From a halophilic archaeon SHRA6 (GTDB taxonomy: Archaea; Halobacteriota; Halobacteria; Halobacteriales; Haloferacaceae), in assembly GCA_005239175.1 (NCBI GenBank), contig SOPS01000001.1, forward strand, positions 186,001 to 250,000: a DNA stretch of 64,000 nt. Reading direction: 5' to 3'. Below are positions 7,694 through 30,818 of the stretch, piece after piece. Within the stretch, counting starts at the first letter, position 1, and every line of letters begins with the position of its first letter. Made by a program: the position numbers and the translations under genes. The notes beneath the pieces are model-generated. The model was not told the DNA's origin, did not search any database, and saw nothing but the letters and a program-made list of their open reading frames with translations.

Positions 7694-8641
7694 CTATCGC
7701 CGCGGCCCACGCCCAGGACCGCCTGGACCGCGGGGGCCGAGCTGAATTCCGGGCATCCCACCGCTGCGGGCCGGGCCGGTACCCTCAATTCGCTTGCCGT
7801 ACGCCAGCCCGATGACGAAGCCGATCAAGTGCGCAAGGTGGGCAATGCCGCCAAGTCCCGCCGAGGCGGCGATCGACGGCTGGAGCACAAACACAATCGA
7901 GATTGCAGCGATCCCGTAGGTGAGGTATTTGATCTTCATCGGAATGACGAAGAACAGTAGCACTTCCAGGTTCGGGCGCAACACCGTGACAACGCCGAGA
8001 ATCGCAAAGACTGCACCACTCGCGCCGAGGACGGCAACTGTGTCGCCAAGGACGATCGAAAACAGGACGTGCCCAAGCCCGGCGAGGATTCCGCTGACGA
8101 GGAAAAAGCCCAAAAATCGCTTTGAGCCGACGTAGCGCTCGACGAGCGGACCGAAAAAGAACAGCGCGATGCTGTTACCCGCGATGTGAAAGAGCCCACC
8201 AGGACTGTGCGAAAAGACCGAGATTACCCAGGTCCAGACGTATTCGGGATTCGCTGTCGACAGCGAGAACACCGCGCGGAACGTGTCGACCCCGAAGAAT
8301 GCGAGCACAGCGAACTCCAGCACAAAGACGATCCAGAATACACCCAACAGCGCGTATGTGACGTTTCCACGGAAAAAGCCCAGAAAGCCGCCAGTACCGG
8401 TCACGTTCTGTTCGAACGATCGCTTCGCTCGGGCGATCGCACCGTCGCTCGTCGAACCGCCTTCGGCGTGAACGCTGTCGTCGAAGCCGCTGTCGAAGAC
8501 GCCGCCCGGATCGTTCCAATCGCCCAGTCCCGGACAGTCGTGGTTCTCTGGGAGTCGGTGCTCCGCACAGAACGTCTGTCCACAGCGGTGACACTGATAC
8601 GGGAGGTTTTCGTAGGCCCCACACTCGTCACACTTTGCCAT
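7694..8641 (-). CDS. Rhomboid-family intramembrane serine protease with AN1-type zinc finger
   Basis: Membrane protease of 315 aa. Residues 1-40 form an AN1-like zinc finger (CDECGAYENLPYQCHRC, then FCAEHRLPENHDCPG), followed by an acidic linker and a six-helix rhomboid core. The catalytic serine lies in GASGAVFAILG and the catalytic histidine in the later helix GGIAHLAHLIGFVIGLAYG; NSIALFFFG contains the family's oxyanion-side Asn. The tail is Gly/Pro/Arg rich. The cytoplasmic zinc finger may recruit substrates. It sits directly upstream of nfi with no gap. Family and active-site assignment are secure; substrates are unknown. Confidence 0.92.
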   Translation of the reverse strand: MAKCDECGAYENLPYQCHRCGQTFCAEHRLPENHDCPGLGDWNDPGGVFDSGFDDSVHAEGGSTSDGAIARAKRSFEQNVTGTGGFLGFFRGNVTYALLGVFWIVFVLEFAVLAFFGVDTFRAVFSLSTANPEYVWTWVISVFSHSPGGLFHIAGNSIALFFFGPLVERYVGSKRFLGFFLVSGILAGLGHVLFSIVLGDTVAVLGASGAVFAILGVVTVLRPNLEVLLFFVIPMKIKYLTYGIAAISIVFVLQPSIAASAGLGGIAHLAHLIGFVIGLAYGKRIEGTGPARSGGMPGIQLGPRGPGGPGRGPRR

Positions 8642-8731
8642 TACTCGTTCCTAGATCCGGTAGGGTAAAATGGGTTTGGCTCGCGGACGATCGACAGACG
8701 CACCCGGTCGAACGGAGACTCGCCACGACAG

Positions 8732-8866
8732 CTATGTTTTTGACTCGCGGGTGTCGGAGGCACTGGCGGAATCCGATCGATCGGTGTCTTCGTCCGCGTC
8801 GGGGTCGAAGTTGGTGGGGACAACCGTGAGGTGGTTCATCCCGATCGGTTGGCTGCGTGCGGCCAT
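8732..8866 (-). CDS. Small acidic protein, unknown
   Basis: A 44-residue frame from ATG 8866 to TAG 8732, MAARSQPIGMNHLTVVPTNF followed by an Asp/Glu/Ser-rich tail. It is in a gap between the rhomboid gene and ppa, and codon choice resembles real genes of the window. An in-frame upstream ATG at 8914 is possible, but that segment looks like promoter DNA. I do not recognise the family. The hydrophobic start and acidic end give no functional clue. This is a weak call, based only on codon use, position and acidic composition. Confidence 0.35.
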   Translation of the reverse strand: MAARSQPIGMNHLTVVPTNFDPDADEDTDRSDSASASDTRESKT

Positions 8867-9024
8867 AACAACAGTACATAGGGCCGTCTCACTCAAAAAA
8901 TTACCCATGCGCATAACACATCGACAGTTCGTGACGTATGTCTAACGTGCATATATTCTCTGCAATGGGCCCAGCCAATACCTAATACTGCGACACCGTT
9001 GCGGTTCGATCGCCGCGAAGTTGG

Positions 9025-9555
9025 TCAGAATTTTTCGTCGTACAGTTCCTGGGAGTGTTCGATTGCGTCGATCGCGGCGGCTTTGTCCTCCCAGCCGAGG
9101 GTTTCGACCTCTTTGCCGGCCTCGAGGTTTTTGTAGGTCTCAAAGAACTCGTCGATCTCTGCACAGGTCTGGTCGGGCACGTCGTCCAGGTCTTCGAGGT
9201 GATCGTAGCGTGGGTCCTCAGTCGGGACAGCGATGACCTTGTCGTCCTGTTCGCCGTCGTCGTCCATTTTCATGAGCGCGATCGGACGGGCTTCGATGAC
9301 ACAACCAGGGAAGGTCTGGTCTTCAACGAGCACAAGGACGTCGAGCGGATCGTCGTCATCGTACCAGGTCTGGGGGATAAATCCGTAGTCACTCGGGTAG
9401 TGGACGTTCGAGTGCAATACGCGATCGAGCACGACACCGGGAAGATCCTTGTCGTATTCGTATTTGTTTCGCTCGCCTTTCAGACACTCGACGACCGCGT
9501 AGATCGTCTCCGGGGCGTCAGGCCCAGTTTCGAGATCCTCAAAGAGGTTGCTCAT
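9025..9555 (-). CDS. ppa: Inorganic pyrophosphatase, soluble type I
   Basis: Hydrolyses pyrophosphate to phosphate in the cytoplasm, driving biosynthetic reactions. ATG 9555 gives MSNLFEDLETGPDAPETIYA, a 176-residue protein of normal family length; 57 upstream codons in frame look non-coding. The family signature is visible: KYEYDKDLPGVVLDR, then YPSDYGFIPQTW, then the metal-binding cluster DDDDPLDVLVL, and KVIAVPTEDPRYDHLEDLDDVP. A TATA-like AATAAATA on the minus strand near 9650 may be its promoter. It is divergent from the PadR gene. Confidence 0.96.
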   Translation of the reverse strand: MSNLFEDLETGPDAPETIYAVVECLKGERNKYEYDKDLPGVVLDRVLHSNVHYPSDYGFIPQTWYDDDDPLDVLVLVEDQTFPGCVIEARPIALMKMDDDGEQDDKVIAVPTEDPRYDHLEDLDDVPDQTCAEIDEFFETYKNLEAGKEVETLGWEDKAAAIDAIEHSQELYDEKF

Positions 9556-9753
9556 ACAGAGAATCGTTTCGACAACACGCTGAAAGGGTTTTCGAGATTC
9601 CCCGGCAAGGGGTTCCAGCGGGGCTACCAGCGGACCAAAATCACGGCAATATTTATTTATTGGTGCAAAAAGGCGGATCACACGAAGACACGGAAGTTGG
9701 GTAATACAACGGTTGGAGATTGTCAAATCGTTAGACAGCGATGCATTTAGTTC

Positions 9754-9789
9754 ACGAAACGTCAGTAGACTTACGAAACGTTATATATC
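9754..9789 (+). promoter_or_regulatory. Direct repeat and TATA box of the PadR gene
   Basis: ACGAAACGT occurs at 9754-9762 and again at 9773-9781, 19 bp apart, and the second copy runs straight into TTATATAT at 9781-9788. The TATA is about 25 bp before ATG 9810, as expected for a leaderless haloarchaeal transcript. A repeat abutting the TATA box is a plausible autoregulatory site for the PadR protein. No binding data are available. Confidence 0.45.
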
Positions 9790-9809
9790 TCCGTATCCTT
9801 TGATCATCT

Positions 9810-10163
9810 ATGTCAGAGGCACATACGATCGCTGACGGGGTGGCTGAAGTACGAGACTTGACCGCGTTCCAGCAGAATATTCTCACAATTCTTGCCGCGG
9901 AGCCAATGTACGGCCTCGCAATCAAGCGAGAACTCGAGTCGTACTACGATGCGGAGGTAAATCACGGTCGGCTCTACCCGAACCTAGATTCACTCGTCGA
10001 GTTGGGCTTCGTCGAGAAATCTGAACTGGACAAACGGACAAACCAATACGAACTGACCAACGGGGGATACCGGGCACTCCTCTCACAGTTTGAATGGGCA
10101 TTCGACAAGATCGTGACCGACAGCGATCGAGCTGACGATATCCGGGCACTCCTCGAAGAGTAA
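9810..10163 (+). CDS. PadR-family transcriptional regulator
   Basis: Winged-helix DNA-binding protein of 117 residues. The core LTAFQQNILTILAAEPMYGLAIKRELE followed by VNHGRLYPNLDSLVELGFVEKSELDKRTNQYELTNGGYRALL is the PadR pattern: helix-turn-helix, then the wing with the conserved Y.LT..G element, then a dimerising C-terminal helix. PadR proteins are usually repressors that respond to small molecules. It stands alone between ppa and the rnhA operon. A 9-bp direct repeat right before its TATA suggests it controls itself. The effector is unknown. Confidence 0.9.
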   Translation: MSEAHTIADGVAEVRDLTAFQQNILTILAAEPMYGLAIKRELESYYDAEVNHGRLYPNLDSLVELGFVEKSELDKRTNQYELTNGGYRALLSQFEWAFDKIVTDSDRADDIRALLEE

Positions 10164-10172
10164 TACGGCAGC

Positions 10173-10787
10173 TTACAACGGATACGACGCGTCCGCGTGG
10201 CTGAATGCCGTGCGGATCGATTCCTCAACGAGCGCTTGCTGGCGCTCGCTTGCCCACGCGTTTCGTGGGTAATACTCCTCATAGAACTCGGTGAGCTGCT
10301 CGGCCGTCGCGGTGTCAAGCGGCTGGAGGTAGTGGTTACCCATGAAATCCGCGAACGCTCGCACATTTTTCGCGTGTAACGCTGATTCGTTTTCGGAAAC
10401 GGCCTCGACGATCGACTGGTTGTGTGTTTCGACCTCGGCCCAGCTATCGCCCTCCTGTGGCCCCAGCGGCACCTCGATCGCTCGGTCCGTGTCGTCGATT
10501 TTATCGAACTGAACGGTTCCGTCCACGACCCACTCGTCTGGGTACAACACAAGCGTGCGATCTTCATCTCGGAGTCGAGCCGTGTAGTCGTGATCGGCAA
10601 CGAGCCGATCGCGCTCTCGGCGATATGCCGCTTTTGCCGCGTCGTCAACCGCCTCTGCGGCGAGCGCAGTGAGCCGTTTGGCCTCCGAAACCACGTCTTC
10701 GGGAAGGGGAATCTCGTCAGTATTGTCTGTCGGTCCGGTCGTGTCGTTTGTCGTTCCGTCAGTCATCTCGGCTGTGTGTTCTGTCAT
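10173..10787 (-). CDS. Conserved rnhA-operon protein
   Basis: Acidic 204-residue protein encoded directly downstream of the RNase HI gene, with a gap of 7 bp. I chose ATG 10787 (MTEHTAEMTDGTTNDTTGPT); the same frame runs open far upstream through rnhA, but that part is a shadow. The protein has a Thr/Asp-rich N-terminus, a helical segment VVSEAKRLTALAAEAVDDAAKAAYRRERD (split here by the AVDD turn) and a C-terminal helical domain ending near FSHADASYPL. From memory, haloarchaeal annotations call this the rnhA operon protein. No catalytic motif is visible. A role with RNase HI is inferred only from linkage. Confidence 0.8.
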   Translation of the reverse strand: MTEHTAEMTDGTTNDTTGPTDNTDEIPLPEDVVSEAKRLTALAAEAVDDAAKAAYRRERDRLVADHDYTARLRDEDRTLVLYPDEWVVDGTVQFDKIDDTDRAIEVPLGPQEGDSWAEVETHNQSIVEAVSENESALHAKNVRAFADFMGNHYLQPLDTATAEQLTEFYEEYYPRNAWASERQQALVEESIRTAFSHADASYPL

Positions 10788-10794
10788 TTCAGTA

Positions 10795-11388
10795 CTATCC
10801 CTCCGCAAACGCTTCGTTCGCGAGATCGTCTGCGCGTTCGTTGAGCTCACGGGGAACGTGTTCGATCGACCACTTGTCGAACGATTTGAGGCGCGATCGG
10901 ACCTCGATTCGATACTCGCGAAGCTGAGGATTGTTCGTCTGCCACTCGCCGCGGACCTGCTTGACGACAAGTTCTGAATCCCCACGGATGTCGACTTCCG
11001 AGAGTCCGTAGTCGATCGCCGCCTCGAGTCCCGCGAGGAGCGCCTCGTACTCCGCACGGTTGTTGGTCGTCGGGTCGATCCGCCGACTCCCCTCCGCAGC
11101 GATGCCGTCGCCGGTAACGATGACCCAGCCGATCGCGGCCTCGCCAGGGTTGCCGCGGCTTGCGCCGTCAAAGTACAGATAGCCACGGCCAGCCCCCTCG
11201 CGCAATAACAGCGTGAGATTGTCGGGGTTCGATCCCTGCACGACGATCTTGTCGTCGTAGGCCACCGCAACCGCATCTCCCCGAGTTGCCCGCCAGCGCT
11301 CGTGAGGCGTGTTTCCATCGGTGAGTTCGACCCCCGCGGCCGCGAGCGTCTCAGCAGCAGCCGCTGGGTCGGCTTCGATCGTCGGCAT
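10795..11388 (-). CDS. rnhA: Ribonuclease HI
   Basis: Cleaves the RNA strand of RNA-DNA hybrids. ATG 11388 gives MPTIEADPAAAAETLAAAGV and a 197-residue protein. An N-terminal domain of about 65 residues, common in archaeal RNase HI, precedes the catalytic fold. Acidic residues are in YFDGASRGNPGEAAIG (first Asp), NNRAEYEALLAGLEAA (Glu), RGDSELVVKQVRGEW (second Asp) and ELNERADDLANEAF (last Asp). The gene is divergent from tfb and followed immediately by its operon partner. All four catalytic carboxylates are present, so the enzyme should be active. Confidence 0.95.
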   Translation of the reverse strand: MPTIEADPAAAAETLAAAGVELTDGNTPHERWRATRGDAVAVAYDDKIVVQGSNPDNLTLLLREGAGRGYLYFDGASRGNPGEAAIGWVIVTGDGIAAEGSRRIDPTTNNRAEYEALLAGLEAAIDYGLSEVDIRGDSELVVKQVRGEWQTNNPQLREYRIEVRSRLKSFDKWSIEHVPRELNERADDLANEAFAEG

Positions 11389-27718: not shown

Positions 27719-27858
27719 ATTCGAGAGGGGGCGATCGGCCAGTCATGCTGCTAACGTTCTCATAGAGTGAATTTCAGGGATAACAGGGTTGAGAGCTACG
27801 TGTATGGAATCCTGTCAATCTCTCACAGACTAAGTTTTTTCTTTAACACATATGAACC

Positions 27859-27876
27859 TTTAAATTAATTATATTA
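27859..27876 (+). promoter_or_regulatory. AT-rich promoter of the small membrane-peptide gene
   Basis: TTTAAATTAATTATATTA at 27859-27876 is strongly AT-rich against a high-GC background and ends 24 bp before ATG 27900, suiting a TATA box. Just upstream, TTTTTTCTTTAA at 27834-27845 could be a U-rich transcript end for the epimerase gene; FttA-type termination in archaea uses such tracts. Confidence 0.5.
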
Positions 27877-27899
27877 TCTCCACGGGCAATGTGGGTAGT

Positions 27900-28043
27900 A
27901 TGTCGCAAGACAACAACGGCAAGATGGCACAATTCCTGGCAGAACACCCGCGGCTGATCGGCGTCCTGTTTACGATGATGTTGTTATTGACGCAGGCGGG
28001 GAATGTAGCGGCAAAAAACTCTGGGTCATTTGTTGGACCGTGA
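27900..28043 (+). CDS. 47-residue membrane peptide, DUF7503-like
   Basis: Too short for most gene calls: MSQDNNGKMAQFLAEHPRLI followed by one hydrophobic segment, GVLFTMMLLLTQAGNVAA, and a short Gly/Ser tail to TGA 28041. The layout of soluble head, single helix and small tail suggests a membrane-anchored peptide or a signal anchor. I recall similar short haloarchaeal proteins named DUF7503, unverified. It has its own strong AT promoter and is convergent with the CHAT gene, with 4 bp between stops. Position next to a CHAT protein suggests it belongs to that module. Confidence 0.65.
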   Translation: MSQDNNGKMAQFLAEHPRLIGVLFTMMLLLTQAGNVAAKNSGSFVGP

Positions 28044-28047
28044 GCAG

Positions 28048-30117
28048 TCACCACTGTGACACGAACTCGTCACTCCATAGTAGCGTGTCATGATAAATGA
28101 CGGGAATCGGAGTGGAACTAAAGAAGGTATTCAAATCGTCTTTTGAGACGGTAATTGTATCAATATAGCCTGATGATAGGTACCGCTTATCCACGCCCGG
28201 AATATACGGAATGAACAAGGTCCCCATATCTGACTTTTTTGTTGGATATGTTTCAATTGCGATTTCAAACTGATTCTCATCGGTGTCGTCTATTTGACAC
28301 ACAAACGGTGTAACGTTTGTCTCTTCTGCAAGCTGTAGATTTCCCTCTCCAATAACCATGTACTGGTTGCCAACTAAACGCTGTTCTCGGGCGATATCAA
28401 TCGCCGACCGCAACGAGAAGCCATCCATGAGTAACCGAATAAATTTAGCGCCAATATCGACTGCCGGCGCGTTCAGCACCTCACTCGTTGTGACAACGCC
28501 ACCGACGCATCCAGCGTCAACGAGCGCATGTCCTTGCGTGTACGATGCACATCCATTGAGAATGAACGCATCGACAGAGAAGCCGTCAAACTCACACGCA
28601 TCAAAGAACCCGTCAGCACACTGGATTCCATCAGGGGTGACGTGGCCTACGTAGTGAACGAAATCCACGTCAGAATACAGTAGTTCTTGCAATGCTTCTG
28701 TTGTCAGGTTCTGGAGAATGGTCATCGAAACGTTCCGTTCACGAAGGGCCTCAAAAATATCCTCGAGAAGCTCACGCTCAGTAGTCATCGCATCGTCGTT
28801 AACGACAACCGCAATTTCGAGATCGCCTTCGCGTTCGAGCTCACGTGAAAGGCGGGTTTCAAACGACTGGACCGTCGTTTTGCCAATTTTGATCGGATCC
28901 GCGTCACCGATCCACGTGTGTTCGACAGAGGCTGCATCAGGCATGTCGACGAATGTGCGCTCGGTGGCACCTGCAGTACTCGCATCCCGGAGGAAGTCGT
29001 TGACAGACTCTGGAGTGGATTTAGTATTTGACGCGATCTCAAGTTCTGGACAACGAATCGCAGCAAGATCGCCAGCTAAGTACGGAAGTGCTTTGATATA
29101 CTCTTGATCAGGTTGGATATCCGCAGTTAACCGCCATTCCGGTAACAGGTCAACAAGGTCTTCAAATGGAATTTCAAGATAGCGACCGATCCGATCGCTG
29201 ATCGACATGTCATAGAGCGATTTGATATCGAATGAATGACGTTTTTCTAACTCGGTGCGCTCGTGTAGTTGGGTTGGATAGTACCCCTCTGTACGGACGA
29301 TACAGTCAAGGAAGAAAACGTGCTGAAGCGTACGAGCAACATCGCTATCGTACGCTTTAACAGACCCTGACTCGCCCAATTCATACTCCCAATCGGGACC
29401 AACCAGTCGCGCATTCCAAGATGGTACCAGCGTCGCACCAAGATAATATGCCAACGAAGCTGCGGGGAATATGTACCGATACTGCGGAGGACAATACAGC
29501 TGAATACCGCTCTGGGGGCGGGAAAGATCTGATGGGATATCGGTCGTTTCGCCGATCGAGATCGTCGGCGGATGCCCACGGAGCGTCGGATACGATCGCT
29601 CCGAAGAGAGCGTTTTGAGCGCGGATCCGAAGTACGAAACGGCATCCATCACCGAGTACGGGTCTGCTTGTACTTGGATCTCCGCGGCAGGATGATCATG
29701 CATTGACCGGTAGCCGATATGCAATTCCGTCTGCGGTTTGAACTCGATCGTTGTCGAAAATAAGTCAGATCGAACCGCGACAGAAGAATCAACCCGAAGG
29801 TACGTTTTGATTCCCTCCGAACAGTCGATGAGGTACGTGTCCTGCGGGAGTTCAACTGGACTCCCATTCGTCGTTTCCGCGACGAATTCACCGTCTGCAG
29901 TCCAAATCTGAACATCCTGCAGCGAGTCGAACTCGATCGCACCCGTCTCGACACACACTGCATGATCGACTGGGAAGTGGAACAGCTCGGGGTCGGACGA
30001 CCGAACCTCAACGGGCCCAGGGAACCCAAATCCGACAGAAGAGCGTTCGATCGGATCCCAGATCTCGAGTTCGCGGCGATCCTCCGATGATCGAACCTCT
30101 GGTTTTTTGACACTCAT
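28048..30117 (-). CDS. CHAT-domain (caspase-like) protein
   Basis: Large protein of 689 residues from ATG 30117, preceded by a GGTGATC ribosome-binding-like stretch. The N-terminal 400 residues hold beta-rich regions and no recognised domain. The C-terminal part is a CHAT peptidase-like domain: the catalytic histidine is in VDFVHYVGHVTPDG (His about 492) and the cysteine in AFILNGCASYTQG (Cys about 523), then GGVVTTSEVLNAPAVDIGAKF. Both catalytic residues are present. CHAT proteases occur in bacterial defence and cell-death modules. GC content is lower than flanking genes. It follows the DUF7504-like gene by 8 bp, so they are one operon. Confidence 0.85.
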   Translation of the reverse strand: MSVKKPEVRSSEDRRELEIWDPIERSSVGFGFPGPVEVRSSDPELFHFPVDHAVCVETGAIEFDSLQDVQIWTADGEFVAETTNGSPVELPQDTYLIDCSEGIKTYLRVDSSVAVRSDLFSTTIEFKPQTELHIGYRSMHDHPAAEIQVQADPYSVMDAVSYFGSALKTLSSERSYPTLRGHPPTISIGETTDIPSDLSRPQSGIQLYCPPQYRYIFPAASLAYYLGATLVPSWNARLVGPDWEYELGESGSVKAYDSDVARTLQHVFFLDCIVRTEGYYPTQLHERTELEKRHSFDIKSLYDMSISDRIGRYLEIPFEDLVDLLPEWRLTADIQPDQEYIKALPYLAGDLAAIRCPELEIASNTKSTPESVNDFLRDASTAGATERTFVDMPDAASVEHTWIGDADPIKIGKTTVQSFETRLSRELEREGDLEIAVVVNDDAMTTERELLEDIFEALRERNVSMTILQNLTTEALQELLYSDVDFVHYVGHVTPDGIQCADGFFDACEFDGFSVDAFILNGCASYTQGHALVDAGCVGGVVTTSEVLNAPAVDIGAKFIRLLMDGFSLRSAIDIAREQRLVGNQYMVIGEGNLQLAEETNVTPFVCQIDDTDENQFEIAIETYPTKKSDMGTLFIPYIPGVDKRYLSSGYIDTITVSKDDLNTFFSSTPIPVIYHDTLLWSDEFVSQW

Positions 30118-30125
30118 ATGATCAC

Positions 30126-30818
30126 CTAGAGCCGAACCCACTCTGTCGAGTAGTTGATTTGTGGGATGTGCCAGCGCTGTTCTGTCGGGATATCTCCCTG
30201 CCGACGGAGCTCTACCCTGGCGTCGAAGAGGTGTTTGAACTCCTCGACGAGCGGATCGTCGTCGTCGATCGGCAGGTGATAGTGGGCCATTCCTTCGACA
30301 CCCTTGACGAGTCCGCCGATAATCCGGATGAACCGCGCGGCGTCGTAGTAGTCGAAGCGCTCGACGATCGGCCGAAGCGTGAGGAGACTCATCCGAAGCT
30401 GGGAGGATTCAAGGTCACCGTACTCCTCGTCGAGGTCGGCAATCTCTTCGCAGATCCGGGTCTGAAGGGGGCGGAGCCGGCTGTCAATCAGCGGCTTCGG
30501 GGTCGGGGTCGACAGCGATGGGTTCTCTGCGGCACTAGCGCCACGGAGCTGATCGGTCCCGAAGTCGATGACGCGCGGCGCTGGGACGTATCCCTGTCTG
30601 AGGTAGTGATCGGGTTCGATCGTCAGATCTGTCGAGACGAGAAGCCGTTCACGGCATTTGTTTGTCGATCCGAGCAGCTCCTGGGTCGCGTGAAACGAGA
30701 CGTTCGGCGCCACTTCGCCCGTGATGAGAATGTTCGATCCGATCTGTTTGAGCTCCGAGAGCACCTCGACGAGCTGTTTTGACTCGCCGCCAGAGAACGA
30801 TGACCCAGCGCGTTTCAT
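30126..30818 (-). CDS. RecA/KaiC-like protein lacking Walker A, DUF7504-like
   Basis: Protein of 230 residues. The first half resembles a RecA-superfamily strand order, GSNILITGEVAPNVSFHATQ, then a RERLLVSTDLTIEPD strand, but the phosphate-binding loop has no GxxxxGK, so ATP binding is unlikely. The second half, QTRICEEIADLDEEYGDLES and RFDYYDAARFIRIIGGLVKGVEGM (shown in part), is helical. I recall a haloarchaeal family named DUF7504 of this type, unverified. It is the first gene of a two-gene operon with the CHAT protein (8-bp gap) and could sense or relay a signal to it. Confidence 0.7.
   Translation of the reverse strand: MKRAGSSFSGGESKQLVEVLSELKQIGSNILITGEVAPNVSFHATQELLGSTNKCRERLLVSTDLTIEPDHYLRQGYVPAPRVIDFGTDQLRGASAAENPSLSTPTPKPLIDSRLRPLQTRICEEIADLDEEYGDLESSQLRMSLLTLRPIVERFDYYDAARFIRIIGGLVKGVEGMAHYHLPIDDDDPLVEEFKHLFDARVELRRQGDIPTEQRWHIPQINYSTEWVRL

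What the first reader, a model, noticed from the sequence alone, without database searches (positions are those of the whole stretch)
27859..30818. Putative CHAT-protease module with a membrane peptide and a Walker-A-less RecA-like partner
Three genes form a compact island. A 47-residue single-helix membrane peptide with a strong AT promoter lies 4 bp from the stop of a 689-residue CHAT protein, whose catalytic His (HYVGH, about 492) and Cys (NGC, about 523) are intact. A 230-residue protein of RecA-like strand order but without a phosphate loop lies upstream, 8 bp from the CHAT start. Lower GC suggests transfer. CHAT proteases act in bacterial defence and death modules, so a sensor, protease and membrane component is a reasonable reading. 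The families look like DUF7503 and DUF7504, from memory. The link to defence is inference.
Basis: partly seen in the sequence, partly recalled or inferred. Interest (0 to 1): 0.8.

Follow-up and report, generated by a model that had tools for sequence, protein, structure and literature searches.

The report
Haloarchaeal CHAT protease with partner peptide
Most salt-loving archaea examined carry a caspase-like protease gene with a tiny gene facing its end, whose peptide usually finishes in the same two amino acids; the pair looks like an unstudied protease and its dedicated peptide rather than a stray antiviral island.

Summary
The three ORFs are real: a 47-aa peptide (DUF7503), a 689-aa protease-like protein and a KaiC-fold protein (DUF7504) without Walker A. 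The large protein's model matches separase, SAVED-CHAT and caspase folds; His492 and Cys523 are conserved. Defence and recent transfer are not supported: CHAT relatives occur in 271 of 292 Halobacteria genomes, and no phage or viral-contig relative was found. The unexpected part is the peptide, encoded convergently to CHAT, with a median gap of 7 bp where it ends in Gly-Pro. All 250 DUF7503 genomes have CHAT. A convergent ORF ending in Gly-Pro lies at 62 of 69 CHAT genes, against 25 of 1195 neighbouring genes. In seven loci of one genus (probably Haloplanus) the helix is lost and the tail is repeated 2 to 13 times, with nearly identical amino acids but diverged synonymous sites (pS 0.43, pN 0.002). 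The tail, rather than the helix, thus seems to be the shared functional part. I read it as a protease with a dedicated substrate or ligand peptide; contact is inferred. It also offers a candidate gene for Haloferax volcanii's unassigned caspase-like activity.

The parts
27840..27873 (+). AT-rich promoter block (-60 to -27 of the peptide start)
   Evidence: 0.82 AT; 119 relatives mean 0.81, 1334 control ORF starts mean 0.42; promoter function is inference
27900..28043 (+). 47-aa DUF7503 peptide gene, convergent to CHAT
   Evidence: PF24335 E=1.3e-21; adjacent to CHAT in 75 of 80 named-genome loci
27957..28013 (+). hydrophobic helix of the peptide ending in a small-residue motif that resembles a signal-peptidase site (residues 20-38)
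   Evidence: sequence; Phe invariant and Gln 90% in 112 relatives; helix and cleavage are inference
28014..28043 (+). C-terminal tail KNSGSFVGP and stop
   Evidence: 102 of 112 distinct peptides end in GP
28048..30117 (-). 689-aa CHAT/separase-fold protease-like protein
   Evidence: AF2 pLDDT 79; Foldseek and VIA-align
28324..28827 (-). caspase/CHAT domain, residues 431-598
   Evidence: VIA-align to 8tl0_C over model residues 431-597, Z 18.5
28642..28644 (-). His492 codon
   Evidence: invariant in A1
28549..28551 (-). Cys523 codon
   Evidence: invariant in A1
30126..30818 (-). DUF7504, KaiC/RecA-fold protein without Walker A
   Evidence: PF24336 E=3.3e-36; Z 17.5 to KaiC; no Walker A in 30 of 30

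Best explanation
This is a widespread haloarchaeal two-gene unit: a caspase/separase-fold CHAT cysteine protease and a dedicated small peptide encoded convergently at its 3' end, often with a KaiC-like DUF7504 protein upstream. The peptide is a leader (in most lineages a membrane helix) carrying a short tail that usually ends in Gly-Pro. I propose that the tail is the cognate substrate or ligand of CHAT: CHAT binds and probably cuts it, and the helix serves mainly to place the tail at the membrane. Shown here: the pairing, the predicted fold, the conserved dyad, and selection on the tail unit. Inferred: contact, cleavage, topology, and any sensing role of DUF7504.
For: All 250 DUF7503 genomes are among the 271 CHAT genomes, and none of the 21 CHAT-negative genomes has DUF7503 (lists compared). 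16 of 16 DUF7503 hits chosen because no listed CHAT lay beside them adjoin a CHAT paralogue. With the same thresholds a GP-ending convergent ORF lies at 62 of 69 CHAT genes and 25 of 1195 neighbour genes (61 of 69 and 23 of 1215 with the first thresholds). Of 169 CHAT ORFs with His and Cys, 132 have one and 11 more a DUF7503 that does not end in GP; none of 7 ORFs lacking both or one of these residues has either. In 7 loci of one genus the helix is gone and the tail is in tandem, pS 0.43 against pN 0.002; the array pattern occurs in 6 of 292 genomes, all of that genus. In 449 peptide pairs chosen on the leader alone, both end in GP in 407, one in 35, neither in 7, whereas 1454 of 2486 residues of the core just before GP differ.
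Against: No contact or proteolysis was tested. 21 of 169 intact CHAT ORFs have no GP-ending or DUF7503 convergent ORF: mostly a second subfamily, tandem CHATs and two relatives outside the class; one of them (L147) does face a hydrophobic ORF. 10 of 112 DUF7503 peptides do not end in GP. The helix region is the most constrained part (pN/pS 0.15 against 0.52 for the core), which a mere anchor would not need. The 7 ORFs without the dyad are a weak control: two are pieces of one gene, one is truncated, one runs to a locus edge. N-terminal positive residues suggest that the tail faces outward, whereas CHAT has no signal peptide by eye.
Confidence: 0.4

Rival explanations
1. The peptide is a secreted signal precursor: conserved signal-peptide-like leader, variable core, fixed GP end. 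CHAT processes it or is its intracellular receptor, as in peptide pheromone systems.
For: Conserved leader, variable core, mostly fixed end; an [AV]-x-A motif before the tail in many forms; tandem copies of nearly one exact peptide per genome, as in multi-copy pheromone precursors; one genome in which 7 of 8 examined CHAT loci face different hydrophobic peptides.
Against: The array form and some second-subfamily forms lack a hydrophobic leader; apart from CHAT and DUF7504 no neighbour family reached more than 18 of 69 loci, so no transporter or receptor is consistently near.
Confidence: 0.25
2. The peptide is a pseudosubstrate inhibitor that keeps CHAT off, as securin does with separase.
For: Separate AT-rich promoter-like block; separase-securin structures are among the best fold matches; close pairing.
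Against: No direct test; some intact CHATs lack a detected peptide.
Confidence: 0.17
3. CHAT releases or activates a membrane-pore peptide, a gasdermin-like death module.
For: Most forms have a conserved hydrophobic segment with a polar Gln, the most constrained region.
Against: Helix lost while the tail is kept and multiplied; presence in 271 of 292 genomes.
Confidence: 0.08
4. The convergent gene acts mainly as antisense RNA or transcriptional interference on CHAT, like a type I toxin-antitoxin pair.
For: In some searches, which searched both strands, every DUF7503 adjacent to CHAT lies opposite to it; 81 of 132 gaps are 10 bp or less; a GP-ending same-strand downstream ORF was seen at 1 of 176.
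Against: Purifying selection acts on the amino acids.
Confidence: 0.05
5. The unit is an antiviral defence module.
For: CHAT proteases serve in CRISPR type III systems (titles of 8tl0 and Craspase entries; listing).
Against: 271 of 292 genomes; no convincing defence neighbour among nine window genes; no viral or phage relatives found.
Confidence: 0.05

Closest known systems
CHAT proteases of type III CRISPR (SAVED-CHAT 8tl0; TPR-CHAT/Csx29 with Csx30)
   Same: CHAT caspase fold; a protease with a dedicated partner protein (Csx30 as substrate is recalled)
   Different: Pfam shows no SAVED or TPR part in the window protein; convergent 47-aa peptide; near-universal in Halobacteria
Separase-securin
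   Same: top fold match, Z 18.9, 185 residues, rmsd 2.8, tied with SAVED-CHAT at 18.5; a dedicated binding partner (recalled)
   Different: no sequence match to solved structures with the A1 profile; partner is a tiny hydrophobic or tandem-repeat peptide
Pfam PF12770 CHAT
   Same: 3 of 25 members of A1 match at E<=0.01, best 1.9e-4
   Different: the window protein is under the curated cut-off; N-terminal beta-rich half and C-terminal domain lie outside the match
DUF7503 (PF24335)
   Same: the window peptide is a member
   Different: the model reports no match in the genomes with helix-less arrays or with only second-subfamily peptides found here
KaiC/RecA-superfamily ATPases
   Same: DUF7504 fold, Z 17.5
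   Different: no Walker A in 30 of 30

Membership tests
CHAT/caspase-fold protease | caspase-like fold | tested here: met
   predicted model: Foldseek 4.5e-8 to 8tl0; VIA Z 18.5 over 166 residues, rmsd 2.3
CHAT/caspase-fold protease | His-Cys dyad in the HYxGH and LNxC motifs | tested here: met
   invariant in 25 rows; 169 of 176 ORFs have both; the distance between the two residues and their overlay on a solved active site were not read
CHAT/caspase-fold protease | sequence match above the Pfam cut-off | tested here: not met
   14.3 bits against 24; the claim rests on fold and motifs
CHAT/caspase-fold protease | proteolytic activity | not testable with these tools
   needs an enzyme assay
DUF7503 | Pfam PF24335 over cut-off | tested here: met
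   76.3 bits against 27
DUF7504 | Pfam PF24336 over cut-off | tested here: met
   125.9 bits against 27
RecA/KaiC ATPase | RecA fold | tested here: met
   Z 17.5, 179 residues aligned, rmsd 3.0
RecA/KaiC ATPase | Walker A P-loop | tested here: not met
   0 of 30
Anti-phage defence system | match of the three proteins to a known system | tested here: not met
   no PADLOC match at E<=0.001; best 0.0063 for CHAT (PDC-S57)
Anti-phage defence system | defence-gene neighbourhood | tested here: inconclusive
   nine window neighbours only, with generic matches to mad2, SspA and DndA; neighbours of related loci not scanned with PADLOC
Peptide pheromone system | secreted mature peptide and response | not testable with these tools
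   only sequence pattern available

The most novel reading that the evidence does not exclude
Halobacteria share an undescribed protease-peptide signalling system: a CHAT protease matures or senses a short Gly-Pro-ended peptide made from a convergent precursor gene, which in one genus has become a multi-copy polyprotein like a yeast pheromone precursor, and in another lineage has radiated into many distinct protease-peptide pairs per genome.
Probability: 0.27. Interest if true: 0.88.

Novelty: new variant of a known kind. Interest (0 to 1): 0.68.

Why it matters
Caspase-like activity in Haloferax volcanii was reported as very high, while archaea were said to lack gene homologues (PMC3615174; abstract and passages read; no passage I saw names a gene for it). 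This conserved CHAT family is a concrete candidate. All 14 genomes of group g7 show one match each; one of them, G040, has the same match coordinates as the named Haloferax marisrubri locus L082, so a single deletion could test it. If the peptide is the CHAT substrate or ligand, it would be a protease-peptide pair kept across almost a whole class of archaea, with natural experiments (helix loss, tail arrays, radiation of pairs) that tell which part matters.

Tried and rejected
Recent transfer: GC is low in CHAT and peptide here, but elsewhere CHAT is only 1.7 points below its flanks at the median (58 of 69 lower), and the family is class-wide; rejected as an explanation of the family, left open for this copy.

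Viral or phage origin: 13 pattern hits in viral contigs, none a relative by tblastn; no phage record; 25 plasmid records, all with haloarchaeal names.

Sequence match to solved structures: none credible with the A1 profile, two hits with E 0.54 and 1.4; the fold search was used instead.

NCBIfam: no match for the three window proteins or L113. A further partner: apart from CHAT and DUF7504 no neighbour family reached more than 18 of 69 loci; eight representatives were named with Pfam, among them response regulators, a histidine kinase and a TrmB regulator.

Circular number dropped: the zero rate of amino-acid change at GP was forced, because only peptides ending in GP were used. One search repeats the test on pairs chosen by the leader alone, and I cite that instead. 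Because of this I lowered the main confidence from 0.42 to 0.40, and raised antisense and defence from 0.04 to 0.05 each.

Cautions: some GP-ended ORFs may not be genes (L166 and L167 are short with little AT upstream, L077 and L080 need a GTG start). Among the 132 GP cases, L114 is the end of an unrelated longer ORF and L057 has masked bases. Near-duplicate species remain in the counts; exact duplicates and fragments with an aligned stretch of 380 residues or less were dropped. The loci are not a random sample: most were fetched as best matches. The tree is FastTree with long branches; on it the array label needs two changes, because the helix form of G289 falls between L054 and the other six array loci.

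Papers: one search found none with both 'CHAT domain' and 'haloarchaea', none with DUF7503 or DUF7504; some searches were read as search listings only, apart from PMC3615174.
Full report
Observation. The three ORFs lie where stated. The peptide is DUF7503 and the upstream protein DUF7504 by Pfam. The CHAT name rests on fold and motifs rather than on Pfam: 14.3 bits against a cut-off of 24, with 3 of 25 relatives matching at E<=0.01. The AF2 model (pLDDT 79.2, pTM 0.75) has a beta-rich N-terminal part, a low-confidence stretch near 358-431, a caspase-like domain at about 431-598 and a C-terminal beta-rich part. Foldseek gives SAVED-CHAT at 4.5e-8; VIA-align gives separase Z 18.9, SAVED-CHAT 18.5, gingipain 17.7, Craspase 14.5 and caspase-7 12.1. 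His492 and Cys523 are invariant in 25 rows. DUF7504 models well (pLDDT 86.9), matches KaiC (Z 17.5) and has no Walker A in 30 of 30 rows.

Distribution. CHAT relatives occur in 271 of 292 Halobacteria genomes, DUF7503 in 250 of 292 and DUF7504 in 292 of 292 with 1-12 matches each. Comparing the lists, all 250 DUF7503 genomes have CHAT and all 21 CHAT-negative genomes lack DUF7503; one CHAT-negative and 22 DUF7503-negative genomes are not printed and were deduced by absence from the positive lists. In a phylum search of 294 genomes, 50 matched and 4 of these are outside the order, all of one family; the contig lengths of two suggest Methanocella, which is recalled, not looked up. The own genome has a second relative at 29% identity that lacks both catalytic residues.

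The pair. In 30 loci (L001, L003-L031), 28 had the peptide by phmmer, each on the strand opposite to CHAT and after its stop. In 80 loci from named genomes, 75 do; the exceptions are L054, L057 (masked bases), L077, L080 and L096. Sixteen DUF7503 hits picked because no listed CHAT was beside them all adjoin a CHAT paralogue. Of the 21 genomes with CHAT but no DUF7503 match, six carry the array form described below, one has a fragmented CHAT (L138), one has a second-subfamily CHAT without a peptide found (L137), and thirteen were searched. In 5 of these 13 (G108, G117, G123, G238, G265) at least one CHAT faces an ORF ending in GP; in the other 8 none was found within the limits used. Over 176 distinct CHAT ORFs, 169 have His and Cys; of these 132 face an ORF ending in GP, 11 a DUF7503 not ending in GP, 3 an ORF with GP within four residues of its end, 21 none, and 2 run off the locus. 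None of the 7 without both residues has one, a weak control, since some are pieces or truncated. With the thresholds, other genes of the same loci have such an ORF in 25 of 1195 cases and CHAT in 62 of 69. The gap has a median of 7 bp; 81 of 132 are 10 bp or less.

The tail. Of 112 distinct DUF7503 peptides 102 end in GP; a Pro and a Phe of the leader are invariant and the residues between the helix and GP are variable. Between similar peptides pN/pS is 0.15 in the leader-helix and 0.52 in the core (109 pairs; pairs share species and are not independent). In 449 pairs chosen by leader similarity alone, both end in GP in 407, only one in 35 and neither in 7, while 1454 of 2486 core residues differ. 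In the genus coded g13, probably Haloplanus because the named Haloplanus locus L054 has the same form, the helix is absent and the tail is repeated: 2, 4, 5, 7, 7, 10 and 13 copies in seven loci (L054 and six genomes), all with the stop within 3 bp of the CHAT stop. Within arrays there are 702 synonymous and 9 nonsynonymous differences. The array pattern occurs in 6 of 292 genomes, all g13, and all 40 places lie beside CHAT; the seventh g13 genome, G289, has the helix form. On the tree G289 falls between L054 and the six others, so the array may have arisen twice or the placement may be wrong. Halococcus L077 and L080 have a form with a GTG start ending in YSGP; second-subfamily loci of family f4 have helix-less ORFs ending in YGGP or YTGP, some of which may not be genes. 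One genome (G123) gave 13 matches, some of them pieces of one gene; of 8 of its loci examined, 7 face different hydrophobic ORFs with GP at the end (4) or within four residues of it (3), and 1 does not.

Mechanism. Because the tail persists and multiplies when the helix is lost, the tail is the better candidate for the functional part. Pairing with CHATs that keep the dyad suggests that the tail meets the active enzyme. Substrate, ligand and inhibitor cannot be separated by sequence. The strong conservation of the helix region argues that placement, or a second function, matters in most lineages.

Setting. DUF7504 is upstream on the same strand in 46 of 80 loci, upstream opposite in 1, downstream in 3 and not found near in 30. 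Other neighbours vary. The seven window neighbours scanned with Pfam are an epimerase-like protein, an aminotransferase, CetZ, a HAD hydrolase, a methyltransferase, DUF5791 and DUF7095; PADLOC gives only generic matches among nine.

Novelty. No paper in the held library mentions DUF7503 or DUF7504 or joins 'CHAT domain' with 'haloarchaea'. PMC3615174 (abstract and passages) reports caspase-4-like activity in H. volcanii and a lack of gene homologues. I file this as a new variant of a known kind: the protease fold is known; the partner and its convergent arrangement are, as far as those searches go, undescribed.

Noticed in passing
L032:10370-12478 (+): Second CHAT relative of the own genome, 702 aa, with both catalytic residues lost and no DUF7503 or DUF7504 found beside it; it lies between a LarE-like ORF and a phosphoglycerate-mutase-like ORF (names from the look of the sequence, no search).
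   Followed up: partly
L032:13466-14944 (-): TatC-like membrane protein (by the look of the sequence) with an acidic N-terminal tandem repeat of about 9 residues.
   Followed up: no
L151:1072-8306 and L152:1948-6865: Tandem same-strand arrays of CHAT genes with no convergent peptide found.
   Followed up: partly
L161, L168, L172, L177, L179-L182: One genome (G123) with a radiation of CHAT paralogues, 7 of 8 examined with their own convergent, diversified peptide.
   Followed up: partly
L113-L116: CHAT relatives outside Halobacteria in one family of the phylum, without a convincing convergent peptide.
   Followed up: partly
L096:14701-14841: A DUF7503 peptide 2.7 kb from CHAT, not adjacent to it, on a Haladaptatus plasmid.
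   Followed up: no
window 8000-11000: A second stretch of lower GC (about 0.55) in the window.
   Followed up: no
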